Below are positions 297 through 11,507 of a DNA stretch of 64,000 nt, in pieces. Under the pieces are notes generated by a model. The model was not told the origin of the DNA, made no database searches, and saw nothing but the letters and a program-made list of their open reading frames with translations. The DNA comes from Bradyrhizobium amphicarpaeae (GTDB lineage Bacteria > Pseudomonadota > Alphaproteobacteria > Rhizobiales > Xanthobacteraceae). Both the position numbers and the translations under genes were made by a program. How positions within the stretch are numbered: position 1 is the first letter of the stretch; every line of letters starts with the position of its first letter. The stretch spans positions 2,262,001-2,326,000 of the forward strand of contig NZ_CP029426.2 of NCBI RefSeq assembly GCF_002266435.3, written 5' to 3'.

Positions 297-1007
297 TTGG
301 CGACTAAGGCAAAGCGAACTCTGAAATGGCAGCGCGACCCTGAAGGGATGCGGCTGCGCATTCTCGAAGCCGCCAAGCAGGAGTTTTCCGCCCATGGCCT
401 CGCCGGCGCGCGCGTCGATCGCATTGCGGTCAAGGCCGGCGCCAACAAGCGCATGCTGTACTATCACGTCGGCAACAAGGACGAGCTCTATCTCGCCGTG
501 CTCGAAGGCGCCTATGACAAGATCCGCAGCGAGGAGCGGGGGCTCGATCTCGAGCATCTCGATCCCCCCGAGGCGATCAGGCGCCTGATCGAGTTCACCT
601 GGAATTACTTCCTGCGCAATCCCGAATTCCTCTCGCTGCTGCAGACCGAGAACCTCGCGCGCGCAAAACACCTGAAGAGATCGACCAAGGTCAAGTCGAT
701 GCACTCGCCCTTCGTCGAGATGATCCGCACCGTGGTGCGCCGCGGCGTCGACAGCGGCGACTTCCAGGTCGCGGTCGATCCGGTGCAGCTCTACATCTCG
801 ATCGCGGGGCTCTGCTTCTTCTATCTCTCGAATTCGGCGACGCTCAGCGTGATCTTCGGCCGCGACCTCCTGGACAAGAAGGCCAAGGACGAGCGGCTGG
901 CGCATATGGTCGGCCTCGTGCTGGCTGCGCTGACGGGCCAGTCCGTGGCCCTGTTCGAGATTGCAAAGGCGCCAAAGGCGCGCGCCGCGGTGGCGCAGAC
1001 GGTTTAG
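297..1007 (+). CDS. TetR/AcrR family transcriptional regulator
   Basis: A 236-residue protein with a typical TetR N-terminal helix-turn-helix. Residues about 18-65 contain LRILEAAKQEFSAHGLAGA, then RVDRIAVKAGANKRMLYYHV and a downstream NKDELYLAVLE segment. The C-terminal half is a helical ligand-binding domain rich in Leu and Phe. The only start that keeps the whole HTH is TTG at 297; the first in-frame ATG (348) lies at the very edge of the first helix. It is the nearest regulator to the ABC importer that begins at 1284 in the same orientation, so it probably controls that operon. The ligand is unknown. Confidence 0.85.
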   Translation: MATKAKRTLKWQRDPEGMRLRILEAAKQEFSAHGLAGARVDRIAVKAGANKRMLYYHVGNKDELYLAVLEGAYDKIRSEERGLDLEHLDPPEAIRRLIEFTWNYFLRNPEFLSLLQTENLARAKHLKRSTKVKSMHSPFVEMIRTVVRRGVDSGDFQVAVDPVQLYISIAGLCFFYLSNSATLSVIFGRDLLDKKAKDERLAHMVGLVLAALTGQSVALFEIAKAPKARAAVAQTV

Positions 1008-1220: not shown

Positions 1221-1249
1221 TGGACAGTATTTATCCAACGGGTTAATTT
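1221..1249 (+). promoter_or_regulatory. Candidate sigma-70-type promoter of the ABC importer operon
   Basis: TGGACA at 1221-1226 and TAATTT at 1244-1249 are separated by 17 bases, in a locally AT-rich patch that contrasts with the GC-rich surroundings. The permease start is about 35 bases downstream. Assigned by eye only. Confidence 0.4.
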
Positions 1250-1283: not shown

Positions 1284-2093
1284 GTGGCTGAACTGAAGCC
1301 GCAGGGTGCGGTGTCCAAGATGCTGAACGCGGCCTGGATCCGGCCGTTCTTGTTCCTGGTCTTCATCGTGGTGGCCTGGGATCTAGCGATCCGGCTGTTC
1401 AAAATCCCCGCCTATCAGATCCCGTCGCCTCTCGATGTCGTCGCCGTGCTGCGCACCGACTGGCCGGAACTGCTGCGCCAGTCCTGGCCGACCACCTATG
1501 CGACCGTCTGTGGTTTTGCTCTGTCCGCGCTGTTCGGCATTCCCGTGGCCATGCTGATCGCGGGCTCGAAGACGGTTGAGAGCTACGTCTATCCACTGCT
1601 GGTGTTCTCGCAATCCGTGCCAAAGATCGCGATCGCGCCGCTGTTCGTGGTCTGGTTCGGCTTCGGCATCATTCCGAAAGTGATCTCGGCGTTCCTGCTC
1701 GGCTTCTTTCCCGTGGTGGTCTCGGCCGTGCAGGGCTTCAAATCTGTCGATCCTGACATGGTCGATCTCGCCCGCGCCATGCAGGGCAACAGGTTCCAGG
1801 TGTTTTGCGCGGTGAATCTGCCGCATGCGCTGCCCGCGATCTTCTCGGGTCTCAAAGTGTCGGTGACGCTTGCCGTGGTCGGCGCCGTCGTCGGCGAGTT
1901 CGTCGGGTCCAATTCCGGCATCGGCTACGTGATGCAGCGCTCGATCGGGACCTTCGACCTGCCGACGATGTTCGCAGCCCTGGTGATCCTCGCGCTGCTC
2001 GGCGTGATCCTGTTCTGGATCGTCGACCGGATCGAGAAGCTGGTCATTCCATGGCATGTCAGCCAGCGCGAGGATGTGATTTTCGCATCCTGA
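1284..2093 (+). CDS. ABC transporter permease, NitT/TauT (SsuC/TauC) family
   Basis: A 269-residue integral membrane protein of about six hydrophobic helices. It carries the binding-protein-dependent permease coupling loop of this subfamily, roughly residues 155-185 (DLARAMQGNRFQVF, then LPHALPAIFSGLK). It resembles SsuC and TauC permeases, which form the channel of importers for small anions or pyrimidine precursors. The start is a GTG at 1284 preceded by GGGAG at 1272-1276. It is followed by the matching binding protein and ATPase. The substrate cannot be read from the permease. Confidence 0.88.
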   Translation: MAELKPQGAVSKMLNAAWIRPFLFLVFIVVAWDLAIRLFKIPAYQIPSPLDVVAVLRTDWPELLRQSWPTTYATVCGFALSALFGIPVAMLIAGSKTVESYVYPLLVFSQSVPKIAIAPLFVVWFGFGIIPKVISAFLLGFFPVVVSAVQGFKSVDPDMVDLARAMQGNRFQVFCAVNLPHALPAIFSGLKVSVTLAVVGAVVGEFVGSNSGIGYVMQRSIGTFDLPTMFAALVILALLGVILFWIVDRIEKLVIPWHVSQREDVIFAS

Positions 2094-2148
2094 CTAAAGC
2101 AGCGAACGGCCACCAACGGCCGAAAGATAACGACGACAAGGGAGAGTG

Positions 2149-3144
2149 ATGATGAAGCGGTTGATCGGGGCTGTCTCAGCGGTGCTGATGGCGTTTGCAG
2201 TTGCGCCCGCGCAGGCGGCCGACAAGGTCGTGCTGATGCTCAACTGGTACGTCTATGGCGAGCACGCGCCGTTCTATTACGGCAAGGCCAAGGGCATTTA
2301 TGCTGCCGAGGGCATCGACCTCGAGATCCAGGAAGGCCGCGGCTCCGCTGCGACCACGCAGGCCGTTGCCGCCAAGACCGCCGATTTCGGCTATGTCGAT
2401 GTCCCCACCATGATGCGCGCCGCGATCAAGGGCGCGCCCGTGGTTGCGACCGGCGTGCTGCTGCAGACCTCGCCGATGTCCGCCATGGGCTTCGCCGACA
2501 AGAACATCAGGAAGCCCGATGACATCAAGGGCAAGACGGTGGCGATCACGCCGGCGGATTCCATGACCCAGATCTGGCCGCTGTTCCTGAAGAAAACCGG
2601 CCTGAAAGAGAGTGATTTCAAAACTGTCGCCGGCGACGGCCAGACCAAGCTCAATGCCGTCATCAACGGTCAGGCTGATCTCCTGCTCGGCTACGTCATG
2701 GACCAGTCGATGAAGATCAAGGACGCCACCGGCAAGGACGTCTACCCGATCAAGTTCGCCGACTACGGCATCAACATGGTCTCCTCGGGCATCATCGCCA
2801 ACACCGACTATGTGAAGGCCAACGCCGACCTGGTCCGCCGCTTCATGTCGGCGACGACCAAGGCGGTCGAAGCCGCGGAGAAGGAGCCAAAAGCTGCGGC
2901 GCAATCGATTCTCGATGCCAACCCCAAGGGCGGCAAGATCGACACGCTGACGCAGGGTTTTGAGCTGACCATTCCGCTGTACCGGACCGCCGAGACCAAG
3001 AGCAAGCGACCGTTCCAGGTCACCGACCAGAATATGACCGACAGCGTCAACCTGATGGTCGAATATGGCGGCCTCGATGCCAAGGCCAGGGAGAACCCGA
3101 AGGCGTTCTACACCAACGACTATCTGCCGAAGAGCGGCTCGTGA
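2149..3144 (+). CDS. ABC transporter substrate-binding protein, NMT1/THI5-like
   Basis: About 331 residues with a clear Sec signal peptide (MKR, then a hydrophobic stretch ending APAQA). The mature part begins DKVVLMLNWYVYGEHAPFYY, the usual start of the NMT1/THI5/SsuA family of periplasmic proteins. These bind hydroxymethylpyrimidines, sulfonates, nitrate or related small molecules. The ribosome-binding site AAGGGAGAG (2138-2146) overlaps the earliest possible GTG, so ATG 2149 or 2152 is the real start. The gene overlaps the ATPase gene by four bases. The catabolic enzymes downstream suggest an organic acid or sugar-derived ligand rather than thiamine precursor, but this is inference. Confidence 0.87.
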   Translation: MMKRLIGAVSAVLMAFAVAPAQAADKVVLMLNWYVYGEHAPFYYGKAKGIYAAEGIDLEIQEGRGSAATTQAVAAKTADFGYVDVPTMMRAAIKGAPVVATGVLLQTSPMSAMGFADKNIRKPDDIKGKTVAITPADSMTQIWPLFLKKTGLKESDFKTVAGDGQTKLNAVINGQADLLLGYVMDQSMKIKDATGKDVYPIKFADYGINMVSSGIIANTDYVKANADLVRRFMSATTKAVEAAEKEPKAAAQSILDANPKGGKIDTLTQGFELTIPLYRTAETKSKRPFQVTDQNMTDSVNLMVEYGGLDAKARENPKAFYTNDYLPKSGS

Positions 3145-3989
3145 AACCTGCGACAGCCATGAATGAAACCGCGCAGCCGGCCGCGCATCTGAGACTGGTG
3201 AGCGACCGGGCTGCCGGCGATACGTCGGGCATCAAGCTGTCGGGGGTGTCGAAGACTTACCGGACGCGGGACGGCGACGTGCCGTCGCTGCGTCCGCTCG
3301 ACTTCCACATCAATGACGGCGAGTTCTTCGTCGTGGTCGGCCCGAGCGGCTGCGGCAAGTCCACACTGCTCAAGCTGATCTCCGGTCTGCTGCCGCCGAC
3401 GTCGGGAGAGATCCTGGTCGAGGGCGAGAAGGTGACGAAGCCGCATGGCAATGTCGGCATCGTGTTCCAGAATGCGCTGCTCTTGCCGTGGCGCAACATT
3501 CTCGCCAACGTGATGCTGCCGATTGACATGAAGCGGCTGCCGCGGGACGAATATCTTGTCCGTGCCAAGGCGCTGTTGAAGCTGGTCGGGCTCGAGGGCT
3601 TCGAGAAGAAGCTGCCCTGGCAGCTCTCCGGCGGCATGCAGCAACGCGCCTCGATCTGCCGCGCGCTGGTGCATGACCCAAAAATCATGCTGATGGACGA
3701 GCCGTTCGGCGCGCTCGACGCGCTGACGCGCGAGCGCATGAATGTCGAGCTGATGCGGATTCAGCGCGAGACCAGGAAGACGGTGCTGCTGATCACGCAT
3801 TCGATTCCGGAAGCCGTGTTCCTCGCCGACCGCGTGCTGGTGATGACCGAGCGGCCCGGTGCGGTCGCCGCCATTTACGACGTGCCGCTGCCGCGCCCGC
3901 GCTCGCTGGATGTGATGGCCGACCCGGTATTCACCGAACTCGTGCAGCGCATCCGCAAGCATTTCTTCTCGCAGGGGACACTGGACTAA
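3141..3989 (+). CDS. ABC transporter ATP-binding protein, SsuB/TauB-like
   Basis: A 282-residue nucleotide-binding subunit. Visible motifs are Walker A GPSGCGKST (67-75), signature LSGGMQQR (from 162), Walker B IMLMDEPFGALD (from 182) and the switch region LLITHSIPEA. It starts at a GTG overlapping the stop of the binding-protein gene (GTGA); an ATG seven codons in (3159) is an alternative. It has an N-terminal extension of about 30 residues compared with minimal family members. It powers the importer made with the two preceding genes. Confidence 0.92.
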   Translation: MKPATAMNETAQPAAHLRLVSDRAAGDTSGIKLSGVSKTYRTRDGDVPSLRPLDFHINDGEFFVVVGPSGCGKSTLLKLISGLLPPTSGEILVEGEKVTKPHGNVGIVFQNALLLPWRNILANVMLPIDMKRLPRDEYLVRAKALLKLVGLEGFEKKLPWQLSGGMQQRASICRALVHDPKIMLMDEPFGALDALTRERMNVELMRIQRETRKTVLLITHSIPEAVFLADRVLVMTERPGAVAAIYDVPLPRPRSLDVMADPVFTELVQRIRKHFFSQGTLD

Positions 3990-4032
3990 GGCGATGGGAT
4001 TGGCCTTGACCGCAACCACGACGACGGTGCGC

Positions 4033-4156
4033 TCCCTCTCCCGCTTGCGGGGGAGGGTCGGGGAGGGGGTGTCTCGCCTCGCGAGGACCCCCAAGAGGAG
4101 AAAGCCCTCACCCGCCGTGCTTCGCGCGGCGACCTCTCCCGCAAGCGGGAGAGGTG
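4033..4156. repeat. Palindromic intergenic repeat, family C (CTCTCCCGC hairpins)
   Basis: Left arm CTCTCCCGCTTGCGGGGGAG and right arm CTCTCCCGCAAGCGGGAGAG are each hairpins, and they can also pair with each other across a 100-base centre. The element sits between the ATPase gene and the enolase-superfamily gene. It would be read through if the two halves form one operon. A spurious GTG start for the next gene lies inside its right arm. Confidence 0.75.
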
Positions 4157-4192
4157 ACCGTCCCCGCTGCAAGACTTCTGGGACCCATTAGC

Positions 4193-5590
4193 ATGTCTCC
4201 CCGCCTGAAGCTGCGAGACATCGCCTTTTTCGAACGTCCCGTGCAGTTTGCTCGGCCGTTCCGCTTTGGCGCCATCACGATCAACGCAACGCCGCAACTG
4301 TTCGTGCGGGTCGAAATCGAGGTCGAGGGCAAGGGAAGCGCCGTCGGCGCAGGCGCCGAGCTGCTGGTGCCGAAATGGTTCGACAAACGTCCGGAGCTGT
4401 CGCCGGCGCAAACCGTGGACGAGTTGCGCTGTTCGCTTCAGATCGCGCGCCAGCTCTATCTGGCGGAGGCGGGTTTTCGGCCGGCGTTCGGTCTGCATGC
4501 CTCGTGCATCAGCGCCCAAATCAGGGCATGTGCGAATGAGAACATTCCGCCACTTGCGGCGGCCTATGGTCCGGCGGAAATCGACAAGGCGATCCTCGAC
4601 GCGCTGCTGCGTGCAGTCGGCACCAGCTTCTTCGACGGAATGGCCGGCAACATCGCAGGGATCGACGGGCGCATGTCGCTCGATCTGACAGGCGCCGATA
4701 TCGCGGCATTTCTGAAAGAGTGCACCCCCTTGCCGCGCGTCGCCATCAGGCACACGGTTGGCCTCGACGACCAGATCGAGGGCAAAGGTGGCGTTGCCGA
4801 CGCAGGCGAAAATGCCGGCGCTCGCTACTTCAAGCTCAAGCTGTCGGGCAATCCGGAAGCAGACGCGGCGCGATTGGCGCTCATCGGCAAGGAGCTCGGC
4901 ACGCTCGGATTCGACTACAGCGTCTCGCTCGACGCCAATGAACAATATGCCGATCTGGTGGCGCTGCGCGCGTTGGTCGACCGGCTTGATCGCGATGCGA
5001 CGCTAAGCCCGATCGCGGCTCGGCTCCTCTACATCGAGCAACCTATGCCGCGCGACATCACGTGGGAGACCGCCCTGGGACCGCTTGCGGAGCGGGCTTT
5101 CATTATCGACGAGGCCGATGAATCTTATGATGCCTTCCTAAAGATGAGGCCACTCGGCTATCGCGGCATCTCTTCGAAATCCTGCAAGGGACTCTACAAG
5201 TCCATCGTCAACGCGACCCGCGCTGCAAAATGGACGACGGGTGCCGAGACCTTCTTCGTCACCGGCGAGGATCTCACCTGCCAGGCCGGCCTCGCCGTTC
5301 AGCAGGATCTCGCGCTCGGGGCCCTCATCGGGGTTACCCATGCCGAGCGCAACGGTCATCATTACGTCGACGGCTTTGGCGACACGCCTCTCGCCGAGGC
5401 GCGGGCCTTCGCCGCCGCGCATCCCGATCTCTATGCCGATGCCGGGCAGGGCATCCGCCTCTCGATTCACAACGGCGATCTCCGGACTAGATCGCTCAAC
5501 ACAAATGGCTTTGCGACGTCGGTCCATCCGGACTGGTCGGCGCTTCGCCCGCTCGAACAGCCGAAATCACTTCAGGAGTATCCGGCATGA
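4193..5590 (+). CDS. Enolase-superfamily protein (mandelate racemase/muconate lactonizing type)
   Basis: A 465-residue protein. The C-terminal barrel shows the superfamily pattern: KLK at 214-216 (second-strand lysines), the three metal ligands expected at D247 (SLDANEQY), E282 (YIEQP) and D306 (IDEADES), and a lysine-containing segment SSKSCKG at 328-333. Such enzymes abstract a proton alpha to a carboxylate, giving dehydration, racemisation or cycloisomerisation. I chose ATG 4193 because an earlier in-frame GTG (4154) lies inside a repeat. The gene overlaps the dehydrogenase gene by four bases (ATGA), so the two are translationally coupled. The substrate is unknown; a sugar acid or similar compound delivered by the upstream importer is plausible. 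Confidence 0.8.
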   Translation: MSPRLKLRDIAFFERPVQFARPFRFGAITINATPQLFVRVEIEVEGKGSAVGAGAELLVPKWFDKRPELSPAQTVDELRCSLQIARQLYLAEAGFRPAFGLHASCISAQIRACANENIPPLAAAYGPAEIDKAILDALLRAVGTSFFDGMAGNIAGIDGRMSLDLTGADIAAFLKECTPLPRVAIRHTVGLDDQIEGKGGVADAGENAGARYFKLKLSGNPEADAARLALIGKELGTLGFDYSVSLDANEQYADLVALRALVDRLDRDATLSPIAARLLYIEQPMPRDITWETALGPLAERAFIIDEADESYDAFLKMRPLGYRGISSKSCKGLYKSIVNATRAAKWTTGAETFFVTGEDLTCQAGLAVQQDLALGALIGVTHAERNGHHYVDGFGDTPLAEARAFAAAHPDLYADAGQGIRLSIHNGDLRTRSLNTNGFATSVHPDWSALRPLEQPKSLQEYPA

Positions 5591-6738
5591 CCACCCAACG
5601 TCTCGGCCTCATCATGAACGGCGTCACCGGCCGCATGGGGCTCAACCAGCATCTGATCCGCTCGATCGTCGCGATCCGGGAGCAGGGCGGCGTCCGCCTG
5701 AAGAACGGCGATCGAATCATGCCCGATCCGATCCTGGTCGGCCGCAGTGCCGAGAAGGTCGAGGCGCTTGCCAAGCGCTTCAACATCACGCGCTGGACCA
5801 CCGACCTCGATGCGGCGCTGGCCGACAAGAACGACACCATGTTCTTCGACGCCGCGACCACGCAGGCACGGCCGGGTCTTCTCACCCAGGCCATCAATGC
5901 CGGCAAGCACGTCTATTGCGAGAAGCCGATCGCGACCAATTTCGAGGAGGCGCTCGAAGTCGTCAAGCTCGCCAATGCCAAAGGCGTCAAGCATGGCACG
6001 GTGCAGGACAAGCTGTTCCTGCCAGGCCTGAAGAAGATCGCTTTCCTGCGCGATTCCGGCTTCTTCGGCCGCATCCTCTCGGTGCGCGGCGAGTTCGGCT
6101 ATTGGGTGTTCGAAGGCGGCTGGCAGGAGGCGCAGCGGCCGTCCTGGAACTACCGCGACGAGGACGGCGGCGGCATCATCCTCGACATGGTCTGCCACTG
6201 GCGCTACGTGCTCGACAACCTCTTCGGCAACGTCCAGAGCGTGGTCTGTATCGGCAACACCGACATCCCCGAGCGCTACGACGAGCAGGGAAAGAAATAC
6301 AAGGCGACTGCCGACGATTCCGCTTACGCCACCTTCCAGCTCGAAGGCGGCGTCATCGCCCACATCAACATGTCCTGGGTCACCCGCGTCTATCGCGACG
6401 ACCTCGTCACCTTCCAGGTCGACGGCACACATGGCTCGGCGGTCGCGGGTCTCACTGACTGTATGATCCAGGCGCGCCAGGCAACGCCGCGGCCGGTGTG
6501 GAATCCCGACGAGAAGCGGCTGCACGATTTCTACGGCGACTGGCAGAAGCTGCCCGACAACGTCAGCTACGACAACGGCTTCAAGGAGCAGTGGGAGATG
6601 TTCATCCGTCACGTCTACGAGGATGCGCCCTACAAGTTCACGCTGCTCGAAGGCGTCAAGGGCGTGCAACTCGCCGAATGCGCGCTGAAGAGCTGGAAGG
6701 AGCGACGCTGGATCGACGTCGCCCCGATCAAGGCGTGA
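5587..6738 (+). CDS. Gfo/Idh/MocA family oxidoreductase
   Basis: 383 residues. The N-terminal Rossmann domain opens LGLIMNGVTGRMG, and the family motif CEKP is at 111-114, where the lysine is the usual catalytic residue. The C-terminal part has the alpha/beta substrate domain with a conserved-looking histidine-rich stretch near DMVCHWRYVLDN. Family members oxidise or reduce hydroxyls on sugars, inositols and related compounds with NAD(P). The start codon is fixed by the ATGA overlap with the enolase-superfamily gene. Its place between that enzyme and the DUF993 protein makes it a step of the same pathway. Confidence 0.87.
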   Translation: MTTQRLGLIMNGVTGRMGLNQHLIRSIVAIREQGGVRLKNGDRIMPDPILVGRSAEKVEALAKRFNITRWTTDLDAALADKNDTMFFDAATTQARPGLLTQAINAGKHVYCEKPIATNFEEALEVVKLANAKGVKHGTVQDKLFLPGLKKIAFLRDSGFFGRILSVRGEFGYWVFEGGWQEAQRPSWNYRDEDGGGIILDMVCHWRYVLDNLFGNVQSVVCIGNTDIPERYDEQGKKYKATADDSAYATFQLEGGVIAHINMSWVTRVYRDDLVTFQVDGTHGSAVAGLTDCMIQARQATPRPVWNPDEKRLHDFYGDWQKLPDNVSYDNGFKEQWEMFIRHVYEDAPYKFTLLEGVKGVQLAECALKSWKERRWIDVAPIKA

Positions 6739-6772
6739 GAATTCTTGGACAAATGCCGATGTATGTTCAGCT

Positions 6773-6856
6773 GTCATTGCGAGCGAAGCGAAGCAATCCA
6801 GAATCCCTCCGCGTCGACGGTCTGGATTGCTTCGTCGCTTCGCGCCTCGCAATGAC
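6773..6856. repeat. Palindromic intergenic repeat, family B copy 1
   Basis: Bounded by GTCATTGCGAGCGAAGCG and CGCCTCGCAATGAC, with inner arms GCAATCCAGA / TCTGGATTGC. The same design recurs at 39781-39861, 53954-54038 and 58159-58236. It lies between the dehydrogenase and DUF993 genes of one apparent operon and has not broken the reading direction. Confidence 0.85.
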
Positions 6857-6874
6857 GGGGAGAGGTTCGAAGTC

Positions 6875-8065
6875 ATGAATAAGCCCGTCCAACCCATGTC
6901 GTCACTGTCGCTCAGGCTGCCGAAGGCCGACCGGTCGGTCGAGACCTATCGGCTCGCGGCGTCGCGAATCTTTCCGGCCAAGCTCGAAGGAGCGCTCAAC
7001 CGCATCGCGTTCTCCGCCGTGCACACGGTTGTCGATCCCTTCGCCGACAATGATCCCTGGCTTTCCGCGGCCGTCGATTGGGACAAGACCATCGCGTTCC
7101 GCGAGCATGTCTGGGACCTCGGTCTCGGTGTTGCCGAAGCCATGGACACCGCGCAGCGCGGTATGGGGCTGGACTGGCCGACCTCGCTGGAGCTGATCAC
7201 GCGTTCGGTCGGCGCCGCCAAGCGCCGCAACGCGCTGGTGTTCTCCGGCGCAGGGACCGACCATCTCGCGGTCGAGGATGCCAGGAGCCTCGACGACGTG
7301 ATCCGCGCCTATGAGGAGCAAATCTCGGCGGTGGAGAAGGTCGGCGGTCGTATCATCCTGATGGCGTCGCGCGCCCTTGCCAAGCTCGGTCGCAATGCCG
7401 ACGACTACGCCAAGGTCTACAATCGCGTGCTGTCGCAGGTCCGCGAGCCCGTGATCATCCATTGGCTCGGCGACATGTTCGATCCCGCCCTGACGGGCTA
7501 TTGGGGCACCAAGGATCTTGACGAGGCGATGGACATTGCGGTGGCCATCATCAACGGCAATGCCGGCAAGGTCGACGGCGTCAAAGTCTCGCTGCTCGAC
7601 AAGCAGCGCGAGATCGACATGCGCCGCCGCCTCGACAAGCGCATCAAGATGTACACCGGCGATGACTTCAATTACGCCGAGCTGATCGCCGGCGACAGCG
7701 AAGGCTTTTCACACGCGCTGCTCGGCATCTTCGACGCGATCGCGCCGGCGGCATCCTACGCGCTGTCGCGGCTGACGGCCGGCGACGAGGCCGGTTTCCA
7801 TGACGTGCTGGGGCCGACCGTGCCGCTGTCGCGCCATATCTTCAAGGCGCCGACGCGGTTCTACAAGACCGGCGTGGTCTTCATGGCGTATCTCAACGGC
7901 CACCAGGACCATTTCACCATGGTCGGCGGGCAGGAGAGTACGCGCTCCACGCTGCATCTGGCCGAGCTGTTCCGTCTGGCCGACAAGGCCGGCCTGCTCG
8001 CCAACCCTGAACTCGCGACGCAGCGGATGAAGACCGTGCTCGCCACCCACGGTATCGAATCCTGA
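6875..8065 (+). CDS. DUF993 family protein (dihydrodipicolinate-synthase-like TIM barrel)
   Basis: About 396 residues. The sequence matches my memory of DUF993, a family usually described as related to dihydrodipicolinate synthase: it has repeated beta-alpha units, a mid-protein lysine region (GKVDGVKVSLLDK) and a C-terminal NGHQDHFTMVGG segment. I cannot assign the lysine that would form a Schiff base. ATG 6875 is preceded by GGGGAGAGG; earlier in-frame codons run into repeat B. It overlaps the next gene by one base. An aldolase- or lyase-type reaction on the product of the two upstream enzymes is the natural guess, not an established role. Confidence 0.75.
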   Translation: MNKPVQPMSSLSLRLPKADRSVETYRLAASRIFPAKLEGALNRIAFSAVHTVVDPFADNDPWLSAAVDWDKTIAFREHVWDLGLGVAEAMDTAQRGMGLDWPTSLELITRSVGAAKRRNALVFSGAGTDHLAVEDARSLDDVIRAYEEQISAVEKVGGRIILMASRALAKLGRNADDYAKVYNRVLSQVREPVIIHWLGDMFDPALTGYWGTKDLDEAMDIAVAIINGNAGKVDGVKVSLLDKQREIDMRRRLDKRIKMYTGDDFNYAELIAGDSEGFSHALLGIFDAIAPAASYALSRLTAGDEAGFHDVLGPTVPLSRHIFKAPTRFYKTGVVFMAYLNGHQDHFTMVGGQESTRSTLHLAELFRLADKAGLLANPELATQRMKTVLATHGIES

Positions 8066-8928
8066 TGCGCGATTTCTCCTCCGACCATCGCTGGCTGTCG
8101 CTGAACACGGCGACGGTCCGCAAGCAGGGCGATCTCGTTGCGATCATCGATGCCTGCGCGAAGCACGGCATTCGCGCCATCGATCCCTGGCGAGACCAGG
8201 TCGCTGCCGTCGGCCTCGACCGTGCCGTGCGCGCGGTGCGCGAGGCCGGCCTCGCATTGTCAGGCTATTGCCGTGGCGGCATGTTCACCTCGGACGCATC
8301 GCGCCGGAGTGAAGTGCGCGACGACAACCGTCGCTGTGTCGATGAAGCCAAGGCGCTGGGCGCGCCCTGCATCGTCCTCGTCGTCGGCGGCCTGCCGCAA
8401 TATTCGCGGCCGGGCAGCGAGGCGTCAAAGGACATCGCGGCGGCGCGCGGGCAGGTCGAGGAGGCGCTCGCCGAGATGCTCGACTATGCGAGACAGGCAA
8501 ACCTGCCGCTGGCGATCGAGCCGTTACACCCGGCCTATGCGGCCGACCGCGCTTGCGTGAACACGACGAAGCAGGCGCTCGATATCTGCGATCGGCTCGA
8601 TCCGGCTCGCAGCGGCATGCTCGGCGTCGCGCTCGATGTTTATCACATCTGGTGGGACCCCGAGTTGATGGACCAGATCGCCCGTGCGGGCCGGGATCGT
8701 CTGCTCGCGTTCCACGTCTGCGACTGGCTTGTCCCGACCAAGGACATCCTTAACGACCGCGGCATGATGGGCGACGGCGTCATCGACATCAGATCGGTGC
8801 GTGCCGCCGTGGAAGCGCAGGGCTTTGCCGGCTATTCCGAGATCGAGATCTTCTCCAACGAATGGTGGGGCAAGCCGATGGACGAGGTGCTGCGCACCTG
8901 CATTAGCAGGCACAGGACGGCGGTTTAG
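8065..8928 (+). CDS. Sugar phosphate isomerase/epimerase (xylose-isomerase-like TIM barrel)
   Basis: 287 residues with the AP-endonuclease-2-type fold pattern. AIEPLHP gives a metal-binding glutamate and histidine, LDVYHIWWDPE adds an aspartate and histidine, FHVCDW a further metal histidine, and YSEIEIFSNEWW the final glutamates. Family members isomerise or epimerise sugars and keto-sugars, or dehydrate them. The start ATG shares one base with the upstream stop (TGATG). It is the last gene of the catabolic operon. The next gene is on the opposite strand, and I see no strong terminator hairpin in the 108-base gap. Confidence 0.82.
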   Translation: MRDFSSDHRWLSLNTATVRKQGDLVAIIDACAKHGIRAIDPWRDQVAAVGLDRAVRAVREAGLALSGYCRGGMFTSDASRRSEVRDDNRRCVDEAKALGAPCIVLVVGGLPQYSRPGSEASKDIAAARGQVEEALAEMLDYARQANLPLAIEPLHPAYAADRACVNTTKQALDICDRLDPARSGMLGVALDVYHIWWDPELMDQIARAGRDRLLAFHVCDWLVPTKDILNDRGMMGDGVIDIRSVRAAVEAQGFAGYSEIEIFSNEWWGKPMDEVLRTCISRHRTAV

Positions 8929-9036: not shown

Positions 9037-10257
9037 TCAGCTGATGGCACACGGCACGCTCAGAAAGCCCCGAAACCGCACCCGTCCGCCGCGCGTCGGC
9101 TGGCCGCTCACGGCATAGTTCGGGAAGCGCGCCAGGAAGCGCGAGATCGCAATCGCGCCCTCTAATCGAGCCAACGCCATGCCGGCGCATTGATGCGCGC
9201 CGGTGGCGAAGGCGAGATGCCGGTTCGGGGTGCGCGCGATGTCGAAGCGTTCAGGGTCGGCAAATTGCGCGGGATCGCGGTTGGCAGCGCCAATGCACAG
9301 TGTCACCGATGTGCCGGCCTCGAGCATGACGCCGCCGAGCTCGACCTGTTCCGTGGTCATGCGGTTGCCGAGCTGGTTCGAGCTCTCGTAGCGCAGCACC
9401 TCCTCGACGGCGGTCTTGATCATGTCGGGATTGCCGATCAGGCGCTGCTTCTGGTCGGGATTGCGGTCCAGCGCGACGAGGCCGTTGCCGATCAGGTTGG
9501 TGGTGGTCTCGTGGCCGGCATTGAGCAGGAAGATGCAATTGTGCAGCAACTCCTTCTCGGTCAGCCGCTCGCCATTCTCCTCCCCCTGGATCAGTCGCGT
9601 CAGCACGTCGCGCTCGGGATTGCCAGGATTGGCACGCCTGCGCGCGACCAGCGTATCGAGATAAGCAAGGAAGTCCTTTACGGCGTTGTTGCCGCGCGTG
9701 GCGGCATCAGGCGACACGACGGGTTCGAGCGCGCCGAGGATCGCCAGCGACCAGTCGCGCAGCGGCCCGCGTTCCTCATGAGGCACGTCGAGCAGATTGC
9801 CGATCACCTCGATCGGAATGGACGACGCAAAGTCCTCGATCAGCTCGCAACGGCCCTTGGCGGCGATGGCATCAAGCAGCCCGTCGACCAGCTTGACGAT
9901 ATCGCCCTCCATGCCGGCAATCGCCCGCGGCGACAGCGCGCCCATGATCAGGCGGCGGACACGGGTATGCGATGGCGGATCGTTGAAGACGAGGCTCGTG
10001 GTGTGATGCTCGTAGAGCGGAGTGTCGCCGTATTTCGGCGCGAACTCGCGCTTCTTGTCCGAGCTGAACGATTTGGTGTTCTTGTAGGTGGTGACGAGAT
10101 CGTCGTAGCGGGTCAGGAACACGGTGCCGCTGCGCAGGCGCTTGACCGGCTCGTTCTCCCGCAGTGCACGATAGGTCGGGTAGGGGTCGTCGTAGAACTC
10201 GGGCGTCAGCTTCTCGAGGTCGAAGCCTGCCGCCAGTGCCTTCGCATCTGCGTTCAT
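9037..10257 (-). CDS. Cytochrome P450 (bacterial class I type)
   Basis: 406 residues, a soluble P450 without membrane anchor. Visible motifs are the I-helix AGHETTT, the K-helix ExxR in EEVLRYES, and the heme loop FATGAHQCAG with the axial cysteine at C357, followed by LARLE. The first heme-loop residue after Phe is Ala rather than the usual Gly, a tolerated variation that is nevertheless off-consensus. No ferredoxin or ferredoxin reductase gene is adjacent, so electrons come from elsewhere. The gene is divergent from the thiamine-diphosphate enzyme pair, sharing a 120-base control region. Substrate unknown. Confidence 0.92.
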   Translation of the reverse strand: MNADAKALAAGFDLEKLTPEFYDDPYPTYRALRENEPVKRLRSGTVFLTRYDDLVTTYKNTKSFSSDKKREFAPKYGDTPLYEHHTTSLVFNDPPSHTRVRRLIMGALSPRAIAGMEGDIVKLVDGLLDAIAAKGRCELIEDFASSIPIEVIGNLLDVPHEERGPLRDWSLAILGALEPVVSPDAATRGNNAVKDFLAYLDTLVARRRANPGNPERDVLTRLIQGEENGERLTEKELLHNCIFLLNAGHETTTNLIGNGLVALDRNPDQKQRLIGNPDMIKTAVEEVLRYESSNQLGNRMTTEQVELGGVMLEAGTSVTLCIGAANRDPAQFADPERFDIARTPNRHLAFATGAHQCAGMALARLEGAIAISRFLARFPNYAVSGQPTRGGRVRFRGFLSVPCAIS

Positions 10258-10377
10258 CCCGTTATACTCGCCGGTTAAAGCCGTTATGCCGTTTTTGTTG
10301 TTCTGGTCGGCGCATGCATGCGTCTACAGTCCTGGCATCTCAAGTCTTGGCACCTTGCTAGCCGACCGGACAGGAAA

Positions 10378-10920
10378 ATGCACGCCCACGCTGATGCCGC
10401 CGACACGGCCCCGAACTGGCCGGACGATATCTTCGCGACCCTGCAACGCTTCGACGTCAGGCAGGTGCCTTATGTGCCGGATGCCGGCCATTCGAAACTG
10501 ATCCAGCGCGTGCTGGCGTCGTCCACCATGCGTGGCATTCCGCTCACCACGGAGGAGGAGGGCGTGGCGCTGCTCGCCGGCGCCTGGGCCGGCGGCCAGC
10601 GCGGCGTCCTGCTGATGCAGTCGAGCGGTGTCGGCAATTGCATCAACATGCTGTCGCTGATCCCGATTCTGCGCTTTCCCTTCCTCACGCTGGTGACCAT
10701 GCGCGGCGAATGGGGCGAGTTCAATCCTTGGCAGGTGCCGATGGGATCGACCACGCAAGGCGTGTTCGAGCTCTCCGGCGTCCAGGTGCTGCGCGCCTCG
10801 AACGCGGCCGAGGTGCCGGCCGTGCTGGAAGCGGCTGCATCGCAAGCCTACAATGCGCTCACGCCCACCGCCGTCCTCCTGTCGCAGCGCCTGATCGGCG
10901 CCAAGGTTTTCACCAAATGA
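10378..10920 (+). CDS. Thiamine-diphosphate decarboxylase, pyrimidine-domain subunit
   Basis: A 180-residue protein corresponding only to the N-terminal (PYR) half of TPP decarboxylases. It has the activating glutamate region TTEEEGVALLAGAW, then GVLLMQSSGVGNCINML. This split architecture is known from sulfopyruvate decarboxylase (ComD/ComE) and resembles phosphonopyruvate decarboxylase. The start is ATG 10378 with AGGA just upstream; an in-frame ATG at 10318 would add 20 residues without domain homology. It overlaps the gene of its partner subunit (ATGA). The natural substrate is a 2-oxoacid that I cannot name. Confidence 0.8.
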   Translation: MHAHADAADTAPNWPDDIFATLQRFDVRQVPYVPDAGHSKLIQRVLASSTMRGIPLTTEEEGVALLAGAWAGGQRGVLLMQSSGVGNCINMLSLIPILRFPFLTLVTMRGEWGEFNPWQVPMGSTTQGVFELSGVQVLRASNAAEVPAVLEAAASQAYNALTPTAVLLSQRLIGAKVFTK

Positions 10921-11507
10921 GCAAGGCCAATCTCCTCGACCGCCGCCAGGTGGTGTCCACGCTGCTGGCGGACCGCAAGGACGTCGTCGCGATCGGCGGC
11001 CTCGGTGCCTCCACCAACGACATGTGCGCAGCCGGCGACCACGCCCGCAACTTCTACCTCTGGGGCGGCATGGGGGGGGCTGCGATGATCGGTCTGGGCC
11101 TTGCTCTGGCGCAGCCGAAGCTGCCGGTGCTGGTCATCACCGGCGACGGCGAAATGCTGATGGGCCTCGGCAGCCTGGCTACCATCGGCCTGCAGAAGCC
11201 GGCGAACCTGTCGATCGCAGTGCTCGACAACGAGGCCTATGGCGAGACCGGCGGCCAGACCAGCCACACCTCGGCCGCCGCCGACCTCGTCGGAGTCGCC
11301 AGGGCCTGCGGCATCAAGGACAGCCAGTCGATCTCGACCATGGCCGAGGTCGAGGCCTTCTCTACGGCCGTCCACGACGTCTCGGCCGGGCCGCGCTTTG
11401 CCAATATGAAGATCGACAGCGCCAGCCTGGAGCGAATTCTGCCGACCCGAGACGGCACCTACATCCTCAACCGGATCCGCGGCGACCTCGGCTTCCAGCC
11501 GATCTAG
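10917..11507 (+). CDS. Thiamine-diphosphate decarboxylase, diphosphate-binding subunit
   Basis: 196 residues carrying the TPP-binding signature. GDG is at 76-78 and the metal-ligand Asn is N105 (LDNEAYGETGG), 27 residues after the GDG. It is the C-terminal (PP) half missing from the preceding 180-residue subunit. Together the two make one active site across the interface, as in ComDE-type sulfopyruvate or phosphonopyruvate decarboxylases. Its ATG overlaps the previous stop. A longer in-frame reading from 10638 is only a shadow of the upstream gene. Confidence 0.85.
   Translation: MSKANLLDRRQVVSTLLADRKDVVAIGGLGASTNDMCAAGDHARNFYLWGGMGGAAMIGLGLALAQPKLPVLVITGDGEMLMGLGSLATIGLQKPANLSIAVLDNEAYGETGGQTSHTSAAADLVGVARACGIKDSQSISTMAEVEAFSTAVHDVSAGPRFANMKIDSASLERILPTRDGTYILNRIRGDLGFQPI

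What the first reader, a model, noticed from the sequence alone, without database searches (positions are those of the whole stretch)
1284..8928. A complete importer-to-catabolism operon around a DUF993 protein
A NitT/TauT-type importer is followed by an enolase-superfamily enzyme, a Gfo/Idh/MocA dehydrogenase, a DUF993 TIM-barrel and a xylose-isomerase-like protein, mostly overlapping. Transport, oxidation, dehydration, C-C cleavage and isomerisation are all represented, yet no known pathway fits this set as far as I can tell. Binding proteins of this class rarely serve sugars, so the substrate may be unusual. The gene order is seen; the pathway is inferred.
Basis: partly seen in the sequence, partly recalled or inferred. 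Interest (0 to 1): 0.72.

Follow-up and report, generated by a model that had tools for sequence, protein, structure and literature searches.

The report
Widespread uncharacterised carboxylate-type catabolic operon
A soil bacterium of the Bradyrhizobium type carries a set of one importer and four enzymes that also recurs in distantly related bacteria and looks like the machinery for eating one particular, still unidentified acid- or sugar-like compound.

Summary
The operon is real: a TetR regulator (297-1007), a palindrome (1229-1248), an NMT1-type ABC importer (1284-3989), an enolase-superfamily enzyme (4193-5590), a Gfo/Idh/MocA dehydrogenase (5587-6738), DUF993 (6875-8065) and a xylose-isomerase-like protein (8065-8928). 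Two start sites are corrected; two junctions hold dispersed repeats. The set recurs. In the 80 best-scoring named DUF993 loci, 77 have the dehydrogenase, 75 the isomerase-like gene, 64 the TetR, 53 the enolase. In 289 Alphaproteobacteria, 22 of 26 genomes with the dehydrogenase and 17 of 21 with the enolase carry DUF993 (25 of 289 overall). The importer is exchangeable: NMT1-type permease in 29 of 80 loci, a tripartite carboxylate transporter in 20, both in none. DUF993 has a dihydrodipicolinate-synthase barrel with an invariant Schiff-base-type lysine (K237), but His aligns with the catalytic tyrosine (110 of 110 distinct sequences). The enolase is of the muconate-lactonizing/epimerase type. 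The palindrome is 99% conserved in 20 sequences; its relatives elsewhere all lie at starts of module-type genes (56 of 56 hits). I found no published function for DUF993 in the open-access library. Other DUF993 genes sit in a different, CoA-linked context. Substrate and order of steps remain unknown.

The parts
297..1007 (+). TetR-family regulator (TetR_N + TetR_C_29), probable repressor of the operon
   Evidence: Pfam; best NCBIfam hit RutR at 60 bits, far below its cut-off of 368; homologue in 64 of 80 DUF993 loci
1229..1248 (.). Palindrome ATTTATCCAACGGGTTAATT, probable operator of the TetR protein, ending 35 bp before the permease start codon
   Evidence: 99% identical over 20 aligned sequences (window included) against 51% for the whole intergenic region; the only match with at most 2 mismatches in the 7.03 Mb genome; related palindrome in 38 of 121 sequences scanned, 0 in the shuffled control, all 56 hits at starts of module-type genes. 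Protein binding not tested
1284..2093 (+). ABC importer permease (BPD_transp_1)
   Evidence: Pfam; NCBIfam SaoP/TauC/SsuC hits, all below cut-off
2146..3144 (+). Periplasmic binding protein, NMT1/THI5-like
   Evidence: Pfam NMT1 156 bits; nearest solved structures are an ABC binding protein 4nmy, THI5 and a formylaminopyrimidine-binding protein
3141..3989 (+). ABC importer ATPase
   Evidence: Pfam ABC_tran; overlaps the binding-protein gene by 4 bp
3990..4192 (.). Intergenic stretch with dispersed palindromic repeats
   Evidence: CCTCTCCCGCAAGCGGGAGAGG at window 4133-4154 and, with 1 mismatch on the other strand, at 4035-4056; 62 listed places in the genome, 0 in the reversed control
4193..5590 (+). 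Enolase-superfamily protein, muconate-lactonizing-enzyme-like, 465 aa
   Evidence: K214, K216, D247, E282, D306, K329, K332 in 68 of 68 distinct homologues
5587..6738 (+). Gfo/Idh/MocA-family dehydrogenase, close homologue of PDB 3oqb
   Evidence: Pfam; 885 bits to 3oqb; E112, K113, D200, H204 in 97 of 97 distinct homologues
6739..6874 (.). Intergenic stretch with a dispersed repeat
   Evidence: TGCGAGCGAAGCGAAGCAATCC at window 6778-6799; 93 listed places in the genome, 0 in the reversed control
6875..8065 (+). DUF993 protein, DHDPS/NAL-type TIM barrel with conserved K237, 396 aa
8065..8928 (+). Xylose-isomerase-like TIM barrel (AP_endonuc_2), homologue of SMc04130
   Evidence: Pfam; PDB 3ju2/3qc0, also 7vpf; putative metal ligands E152, D191, E261 in 97 of 97 and H217 in 94 of 97 distinct homologues

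Best explanation
This is a TetR-controlled catabolic operon dedicated to one small, probably anionic and polyhydroxylated compound (sugar-acid- or cyclitol-acid-like). Shown by sequence: an importer, four enzymes with intact predicted active sites, and a recurrent gene set with a conserved palindrome. Inferred: TetR represses from the palindrome until the substrate or a product binds it. The ABC importer (elsewhere a tripartite carboxylate or a sugar-type transporter) brings the compound in. The Gfo enzyme oxidises a secondary alcohol to a ketone with NAD(P)+. The enolase-type enzyme takes a proton from the carbon next to a carboxylate (epimerisation, cycloisomerisation or water loss). The xylose-isomerase-like protein moves or inverts a centre through a metal-bound enediolate. 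DUF993 forms a Schiff base between K237 and a keto-acid intermediate and either cleaves it into two central metabolites or dehydrates it. The order of steps and the substrate are not determined. Glycerate kinase or GarR-like genes in a minority of relatives hint that one product may end as glycerate.
For: Gene set and order. Recurrence: 77 (Gfo), 75 (XI), 64 (TetR) and 53 (enolase) of 80 loci, with the full importer-plus-four order in 29 of 121 sequences including the window, among them Microvirga, Chelatococcus, Ancylobacter, Azospirillum and Burkholderiales such as Variovorax and Polaromonas. Co-occurrence in 289 genomes: Fisher p 6e-26 (Gfo and DUF993) and 5e-18 (enolase and DUF993), not corrected for relatedness. 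Enolase and DUF993 genes co-occur even when far apart (about 1.7 Mb in G367). Palindrome conserved and placed at starts of module-type genes. Active-site residues invariant. DUF993 fold and lysine. Alternative importers include TctCBA and a sugar-type ABC. Glycerate kinase is annotated in 5 of the 13 annotated DUF993 plasmid regions I opened (L103, L105, L107, L108, L109), but only L105 and L108 of these have the Gfo partner; further homologues in L047, L104, L122, L134, L149. GarR-like gene in 6 of 80 loci.
Against: G335 has TetR, TTT importer, XI2, enolase, Gfo and XI but no DUF993 match in its genome. Rhizobium plasmids have the enolase with GH39, KduI and a 2-hydroxyacid dehydrogenase and without DUF993 in the stretch opened. 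Many DUF993 genes sit with CoA-transferase, acyl-CoA dehydrogenase or GMC oxidoreductase genes and without the Gfo partner. 27 of 80 loci show no enolase within the stretch held (up to 10 kb each side, less at contig ends). No ligand, transcript or phenotype supports a sugar acid; among annotated structures the window's binding protein is nearest to pyrimidine-type binders.
Confidence: 0.6

Rival explanations
1. The operon degrades an aromatic or dihydroaromatic acid (quinate- or phthalate-like). The Gfo enzyme would act as a dihydrodiol or quinate-type dehydrogenase, the MLE-like enolase as a cycloisomerase, and the XI-like protein as a 3-dehydroshikimate-type dehydratase.
For: The enolase is nearest in fold and profile to muconate cycloisomerases and related enzymes. 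The importer is replaced by a tripartite carboxylate transporter in 20 of 80 loci, whose receptor has terephthalate-binding proteins among its PDB hits. A ring-cleaving dioxygenase is annotated about 5 kb past the operon in one record (L101). That Gfo-, XI- and NMT1-type proteins serve aromatic pathways is recalled, not tested.
Against: None of the 10 neighbour-cluster representatives scanned is a ring oxygenase or ring-cleavage enzyme (other clusters were not scanned). A sugar-type binding protein, a tagatose/psicose-epimerase-like XI2 and, in some loci, KduI, GH39 or glycerate kinase occur instead.
Confidence: 0.15
2. The substrate is a nitrogen heterocycle or methylated plant compound. The NMT1 importer and RutR-like TetR would be the true guide, and PhyH and MetE-like genes of relatives would remove a methyl or alkyl group before the sugar-like part is degraded.
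For: The window's binding protein is nearest to THI5 and formylaminopyrimidine binders among annotated structures. TetR has weak RutR similarity. A MetE-like and a PhyH protein each lie in 7 of 139 loci scanned (6 distinct genomes each, since L082 and L156 are one contig), and in G367 and G236 the palindrome stands directly before the MetE-like gene.
Against: The NMT1-type permease is found in only 29 of 80 loci and unrelated transporters in others. The Bradyrhizobium genome has no close MetE-like homologue (best 34%).
Confidence: 0.15
3. The module is not a single pathway but a loosely co-inherited toolbox of promiscuous enzymes, each acting on different substrates.
For: Parts occur apart: enolase without DUF993, DUF993 without Gfo.
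Against: Strong co-occurrence even when unlinked, conserved order across Alpha- and Betaproteobacteria, and one palindrome upstream of modules that lie on separate contigs in G276.
Confidence: 0.1

Closest known systems
DHDPS / N-acetylneuraminate lyase superfamily (PF00701; DapA, KdgD, L-2-keto-3-deoxyarabonate dehydratase)
   Different: DUF993 does not match PF00701, is longer, and has His196 where DHDPS has its catalytic Tyr, in 110 of 110 distinct sequences.
PDB 4dnh (SMc04132), 3oqb, 3ju2/3qc0 (SMc04130)
   Same: Solved homologues of DUF993, the Gfo enzyme and the XI-like protein.
   Different: Named by their depositors only as uncharacterised protein, oxidoreductase and sugar isomerase; the one paper listed for these codes was unrelated.
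MLE subgroup of the enolase superfamily (muconate lactonizing enzyme, dipeptide epimerase, N-succinylamino acid racemase)
   Same: Fold, three carboxylate metal ligands, KxK on strand 2 and Lys at strand 6.
   Different: 465 aa against about 370, 12-20% identity in the 50 alignments listed, no Pfam match, conserved ERNGHH and EDLT blocks.
myo-Inositol (iol) and rhizopine (moc) catabolism (recalled)
   Same: Combine a Gfo/Idh/MocA dehydrogenase with a xylose-isomerase-like TIM barrel; iol also has an aldolase step.
   Different: The window's Gfo enzyme scores 71.9 bits against the IolG cut-off of 355; an enolase and DUF993 stand here instead of the other iol genes.
D-glucarate/galactarate pathway (enolase-type dehydratase plus KdgD; recalled)
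   Same: Enolase-superfamily enzyme plus DHDPS-type enzyme.
   Different: The window's enolase is MLE-like, and no protein of the operon matches KdgD.

Membership tests
DHDPS/NAL superfamily (fold and chemistry) for DUF993 | TIM barrel of the DHDPS type | tested here: met
   Foldseek and VIA-align: 4dnh, then DHDPS, HOGA and keto-deoxy-sugar-acid dehydratases
DHDPS/NAL superfamily (fold and chemistry) for DUF993 | Schiff-base lysine on strand 6 | tested here: met
   K237 lies in strand 233-239, aligns with the lysine of DHDPS (hhalign probability 89.7 on shallow alignments) and is K in 110 of 110 distinct sequences. Chemistry itself not tested
DHDPS/NAL superfamily (fold and chemistry) for DUF993 | Catalytic tyrosine (YN.P) on strand 5 | tested here: not met
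   His196 aligned with the Tyr; His in 110 of 110 distinct sequences
Pfam PF00701 (DHDPS family proper) | Score over the gathering cut-off | tested here: not met
   Only PF06187 matched at E 0.001
Enolase superfamily, MLE subgroup | Fold with three acidic metal ligands at the ends of strands 3-5 | tested here: met
   D247, E282, D306 in 68 of 68, at the strand ends of the model
Enolase superfamily, MLE subgroup | KxK on strand 2 and Lys on strand 6 | tested here: met
   K214, K216, K329 and K332 in 68 of 68; subgroup motif recalled
Mandelate-racemase subgroup (acid-sugar dehydratases) | His on strand 7 with Asp on strand 6 (recalled) | tested here: not met
   Strand 7 is followed by E359-D360, strand 6 by K329
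NitT/TauT (NMT1) ABC importer | NMT1 binding protein, BPD_transp_1 permease and ABC_tran ATPase | tested here: met
   All three over cut-off
NitT/TauT (NMT1) ABC importer | Nitrate, taurine or sulfonate specificity | tested here: inconclusive
   No NCBIfam cut-off reached among the hits shown; ligand not testable here
Inositol 2-dehydrogenase / levoglucosan dehydrogenase | Equivalog cut-off | tested here: not met
   71.9 of 355 bits and 56.3 of 650 bits
Hydroxypyruvate isomerase / 5-keto-L-gluconate epimerase IolO for the XI-like protein | Equivalog cut-off | tested here: not met
   21.6 of 353 bits and 25 of 300 bits

The most novel reading that the evidence does not exclude
A widespread and undescribed proteobacterial pathway for an unknown plant- or soil-derived acid. 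It is built from exchangeable modules (Gfo-DUF993-XI; epimerase-like XI2-enolase; SDR-GNAT-DapA-like; PhyH and MetE-like) tied together by one TetR regulon. DUF993 would be a new class-I lyase family that uses His in place of the canonical Tyr.
Probability: 0.35. Interest if true: 0.75.

Novelty: new variant of a known kind. Interest (0 to 1): 0.55.

Why it matters
If confirmed, it gives a function to DUF993, to an enolase branch without a Pfam match in the window's protein, and to PDB entries 4dnh, 3oqb and 3ju2/3qc0, for which I found no assigned function. It would also add a catabolic route found from root-nodule bacteria to Burkholderiales. The TetR palindrome and the binding protein make the substrate directly searchable.

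Tried and rejected
Substrate from transporter family: rejected as a sole guide, since importers of several families are exchanged. Substrate from the literature: DUF993 gave 0 papers and 7VPF 0. The codes PF06187, 3OQB, 4DNH, 3QC0, 3JU2 and IPR009334 gave one irrelevant mathematics paper, seen only as a listing. SMc041xx locus tags gave two papers, of which I saw passages: PMC12542648 lists SMc04132, SMc04133 and SMc04135 with negative values in a PhaR table, and PMC11387232 lists SMc04134 as a transcription factor. Searches gave nothing on point (listings only). A pathway of the glucarate type was dropped because the enolase is not of the dehydratase subgroup and no operon protein matches KdgD. 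A second target of the palindrome in the Bradyrhizobium genome was sought: besides the window site (2 mismatches) there are two places with 3 mismatches, and the reversed control has one place, so no second target is claimed. Actinobacterial neighbourhoods were only sampled through plasmid records, two of them without annotation. MetE-like gene in the window's genome: no close homologue. Alignment A1 held one row read on the wrong strand; it was replaced by A2 and not used.

Limits. Identity thresholds were my choice. 'In order' does not exclude extra genes in between (L058). The palindrome was defined on the same loci on which it was counted, and the shuffled control there keeps base composition only; its placement test (56 of 56 hits within 300 bp before or 60 bp after an estimated start of a homologue of my query genes, windows that cover 14.2% of the bases) uses query genes some of which I chose from these loci. 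The window site (14 of 16) was below the threshold of that count. In one search, 16 places were found in 14 genomes (9 with a match) against 7 for the reversed pattern. 11 of the 16 lie within about 4 kb of module genes or directly before a MetE-like gene, judged by me from coordinates; the other 5 do not, as far as opened. At least G282 is the genome of L082 and G016 of L121, so one search is not independent of the definition. Co-occurrence tests ignore shared ancestry. In the model library, absence of a family from a list is not evidence.
Full report
Observation. The window lies at 2262001-2326000 of a 7,025,930-base single-contig genome. Its DUF993 and enolase proteins are up to 96% and 93% identical to named Bradyrhizobium proteins. 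Reading the DNA moves the enolase start to 4193 and the DUF993 start to 6875. The stretches before these starts carry repeats that occur at 62 and 93 places in the genome (reversed controls 0). A TetR gene at 297-1007 precedes the importer.

Does the set recur? A scan of named genomes with a nine-member DUF993 alignment confirmed 590 relatives, and the tool kept the best 80. In the stretches held (up to 10 kb each side, less where contigs end), 77 of 80 have the same-subfamily Gfo enzyme, 75 the XI-like protein, 64 the TetR, 53 the enolase, 29 the NMT1-type permease and 20 the TctA permease; none has both permeases (Fisher p 3e-5). Several of the missing cases are contig ends. The complete order permease-SBP-ATPase-enolase-Gfo-DUF993-XI was found in 29 of 121 sequences scanned, the window included: Bradyrhizobium, Tardiphaga, Microvirga, Chelatococcus, Ancylobacter, Azospirillum, Polaromonas, Pseudacidovorax, Variovorax and another Comamonadaceae. 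The 121 contain a few near-identical stretches and some loci fetched because they lack DUF993.

A draw not chosen by DUF993 similarity: of 289 Alphaproteobacteria genomes, 25 have DUF993, 26 the Gfo subfamily (E 1e-90) and 21 the enolase (E 1e-40). Overlaps are 22 of 26 and 17 of 21 with DUF993, and 18 of the 21 enolase genomes have the Gfo enzyme. In 19 of the 22 shared genomes DUF993 and Gfo are neighbours; in the other three they lie on different contigs of drafts (coordinates). In a phylum draw, 14 of 200 genomes have DUF993. I opened one locus in each of 12 of these: 4 show Gfo-DUF993-XI and 8 show DUF993 without them. So the association belongs to a branch, not to the whole DUF993 family.

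Modules. In G367, G282 and G236 the enolase sits in a locus of its own with a tripartite transporter, a second xylose-isomerase-like protein (XI2) and another Gfo enzyme; the XI2 representative I tested (from L052) is nearest to D-tagatose/psicose 3-epimerases. G139 and G460 have XI2 and enolase with an SDR epimerase-like protein, a GNAT protein and a DHDPS-type protein (DapA-like) but no DUF993. In Desertibaculum (L082 and L156 are the same contig) the DUF993 module and that SDR-GNAT-DapA module lie together with an NMT1 importer, a PhyH oxygenase and a MetE-like protein; L121 has the same without detected SDR and GNAT genes. The window's own genome has the SDR-GNAT-DapA module with its own TetR and NMT1-type importer elsewhere, at about 3.354-3.361 Mb.

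Regulation. A palindrome with half-site AAKTVACH and a 4-base spacer, scored 15 or more of 16, occurs in 38 of 121 sequences (56 hits in 2.2 Mb, 0 after mononucleotide shuffling). All 56 hits lie within 300 bp before or 60 bp after the estimated start of a homologue of one of my query genes; these windows cover 14.2% of the bases. The window has ATTTATCCAACGGGTTAATT (14 of 16) at 1229-1248. In 20 aligned sequences of the Bradyrhizobium/Tardiphaga type, the window included, this 20-mer is 99% identical while the intergenic region averages 51%. It is the only site with at most 2 mismatches in the genome. In G276 the palindrome lies 1.9 kb before the enolase on one contig and 1.1 kb before Gfo on another, and in G367 and G236 it stands directly before the MetE-like gene. 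That the TetR protein binds it is inferred.

Interpretation. The coherent gene set, its palindrome and intact enzymes make a catabolic pathway by far the likeliest reading. The chemistry available is alcohol oxidation (Gfo), alpha-proton chemistry (enolase), epimerisation or isomerisation (XI-like) and Schiff-base lyase or dehydratase chemistry (DUF993). Glycerate kinase in 5 of 13 annotated DUF993 plasmid regions (only 2 of the 5 with the Gfo partner) and a GarR-like reductase in 6 of 80 loci suggest glycerate as an exit, but both are minority features. The substrate stays open; carboxylate- and sugar-type transporters as substitutes favour a sugar-acid-like compound.

Known or not. The searches (open-access PMC only) found no functional account of DUF993 or of the solved homologues. 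A subscription-only paper may exist.

Noticed in passing
G000:C1 about 3354500-3361000 (L157:7518-13830), outside the window: The same genome has a second operon of like design: TetR, NMT1-type permease, SDR epimerase-like, GNAT, DHDPS-like protein, ATPase, with a binding protein divergent. Its DHDPS-like, GNAT and SDR genes recur next to DUF993 modules in other genomes.
   Followed up: partly
L151:5718-6767, L153:988-2007; also L061, L062, L082 (= L156), L121: A MetE-like (Meth_synt_2) protein, 72-78% identical across six genomes, lies beside DUF993 modules or directly behind the shared palindrome.
   Followed up: partly
L064, L071, L080, L082 (= L156), L121, L155: A PhyH-type oxygenase gene lies in six related loci, in L082/L156 and L155 between the TetR and the permease.
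   Followed up: partly
L102, L103, L106, L107, L109, L115-L120, L122, L123: A second DUF993 context: CoA-transferase, enoyl-CoA hydratase, acyl-CoA dehydrogenase, GMC oxidoreductase, Dabb protein or glycerate kinase in various combinations, without the Gfo partner.
   Followed up: partly
L098, L099 (Rhizobium phaseoli and R. leguminosarum plasmids): The enolase occurs with an oligopeptide-type ABC importer, a KduI/IolB protein, a GH39 glycosidase, a TIM barrel and a 2-hydroxyacid dehydrogenase, hinting at a glycoside substrate.
   Followed up: partly
L126 (G335): TetR, tripartite transporter, XI2, enolase, Gfo and XI present, but no DUF993 match in that genome.
   Followed up: partly
window 9037-11507: A cytochrome P450 on the - strand, then a sulfopyruvate-decarboxylase-alpha-like gene (101.6 bits, below the cut-off of 147.95) and a further ORF that may be its partner.
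   Followed up: no
L025: A record titled Frankia sp. RB7 carries this operon's enzymes at 93% identity in DUF993, so the record is probably mislabelled or contaminated.
   Followed up: no
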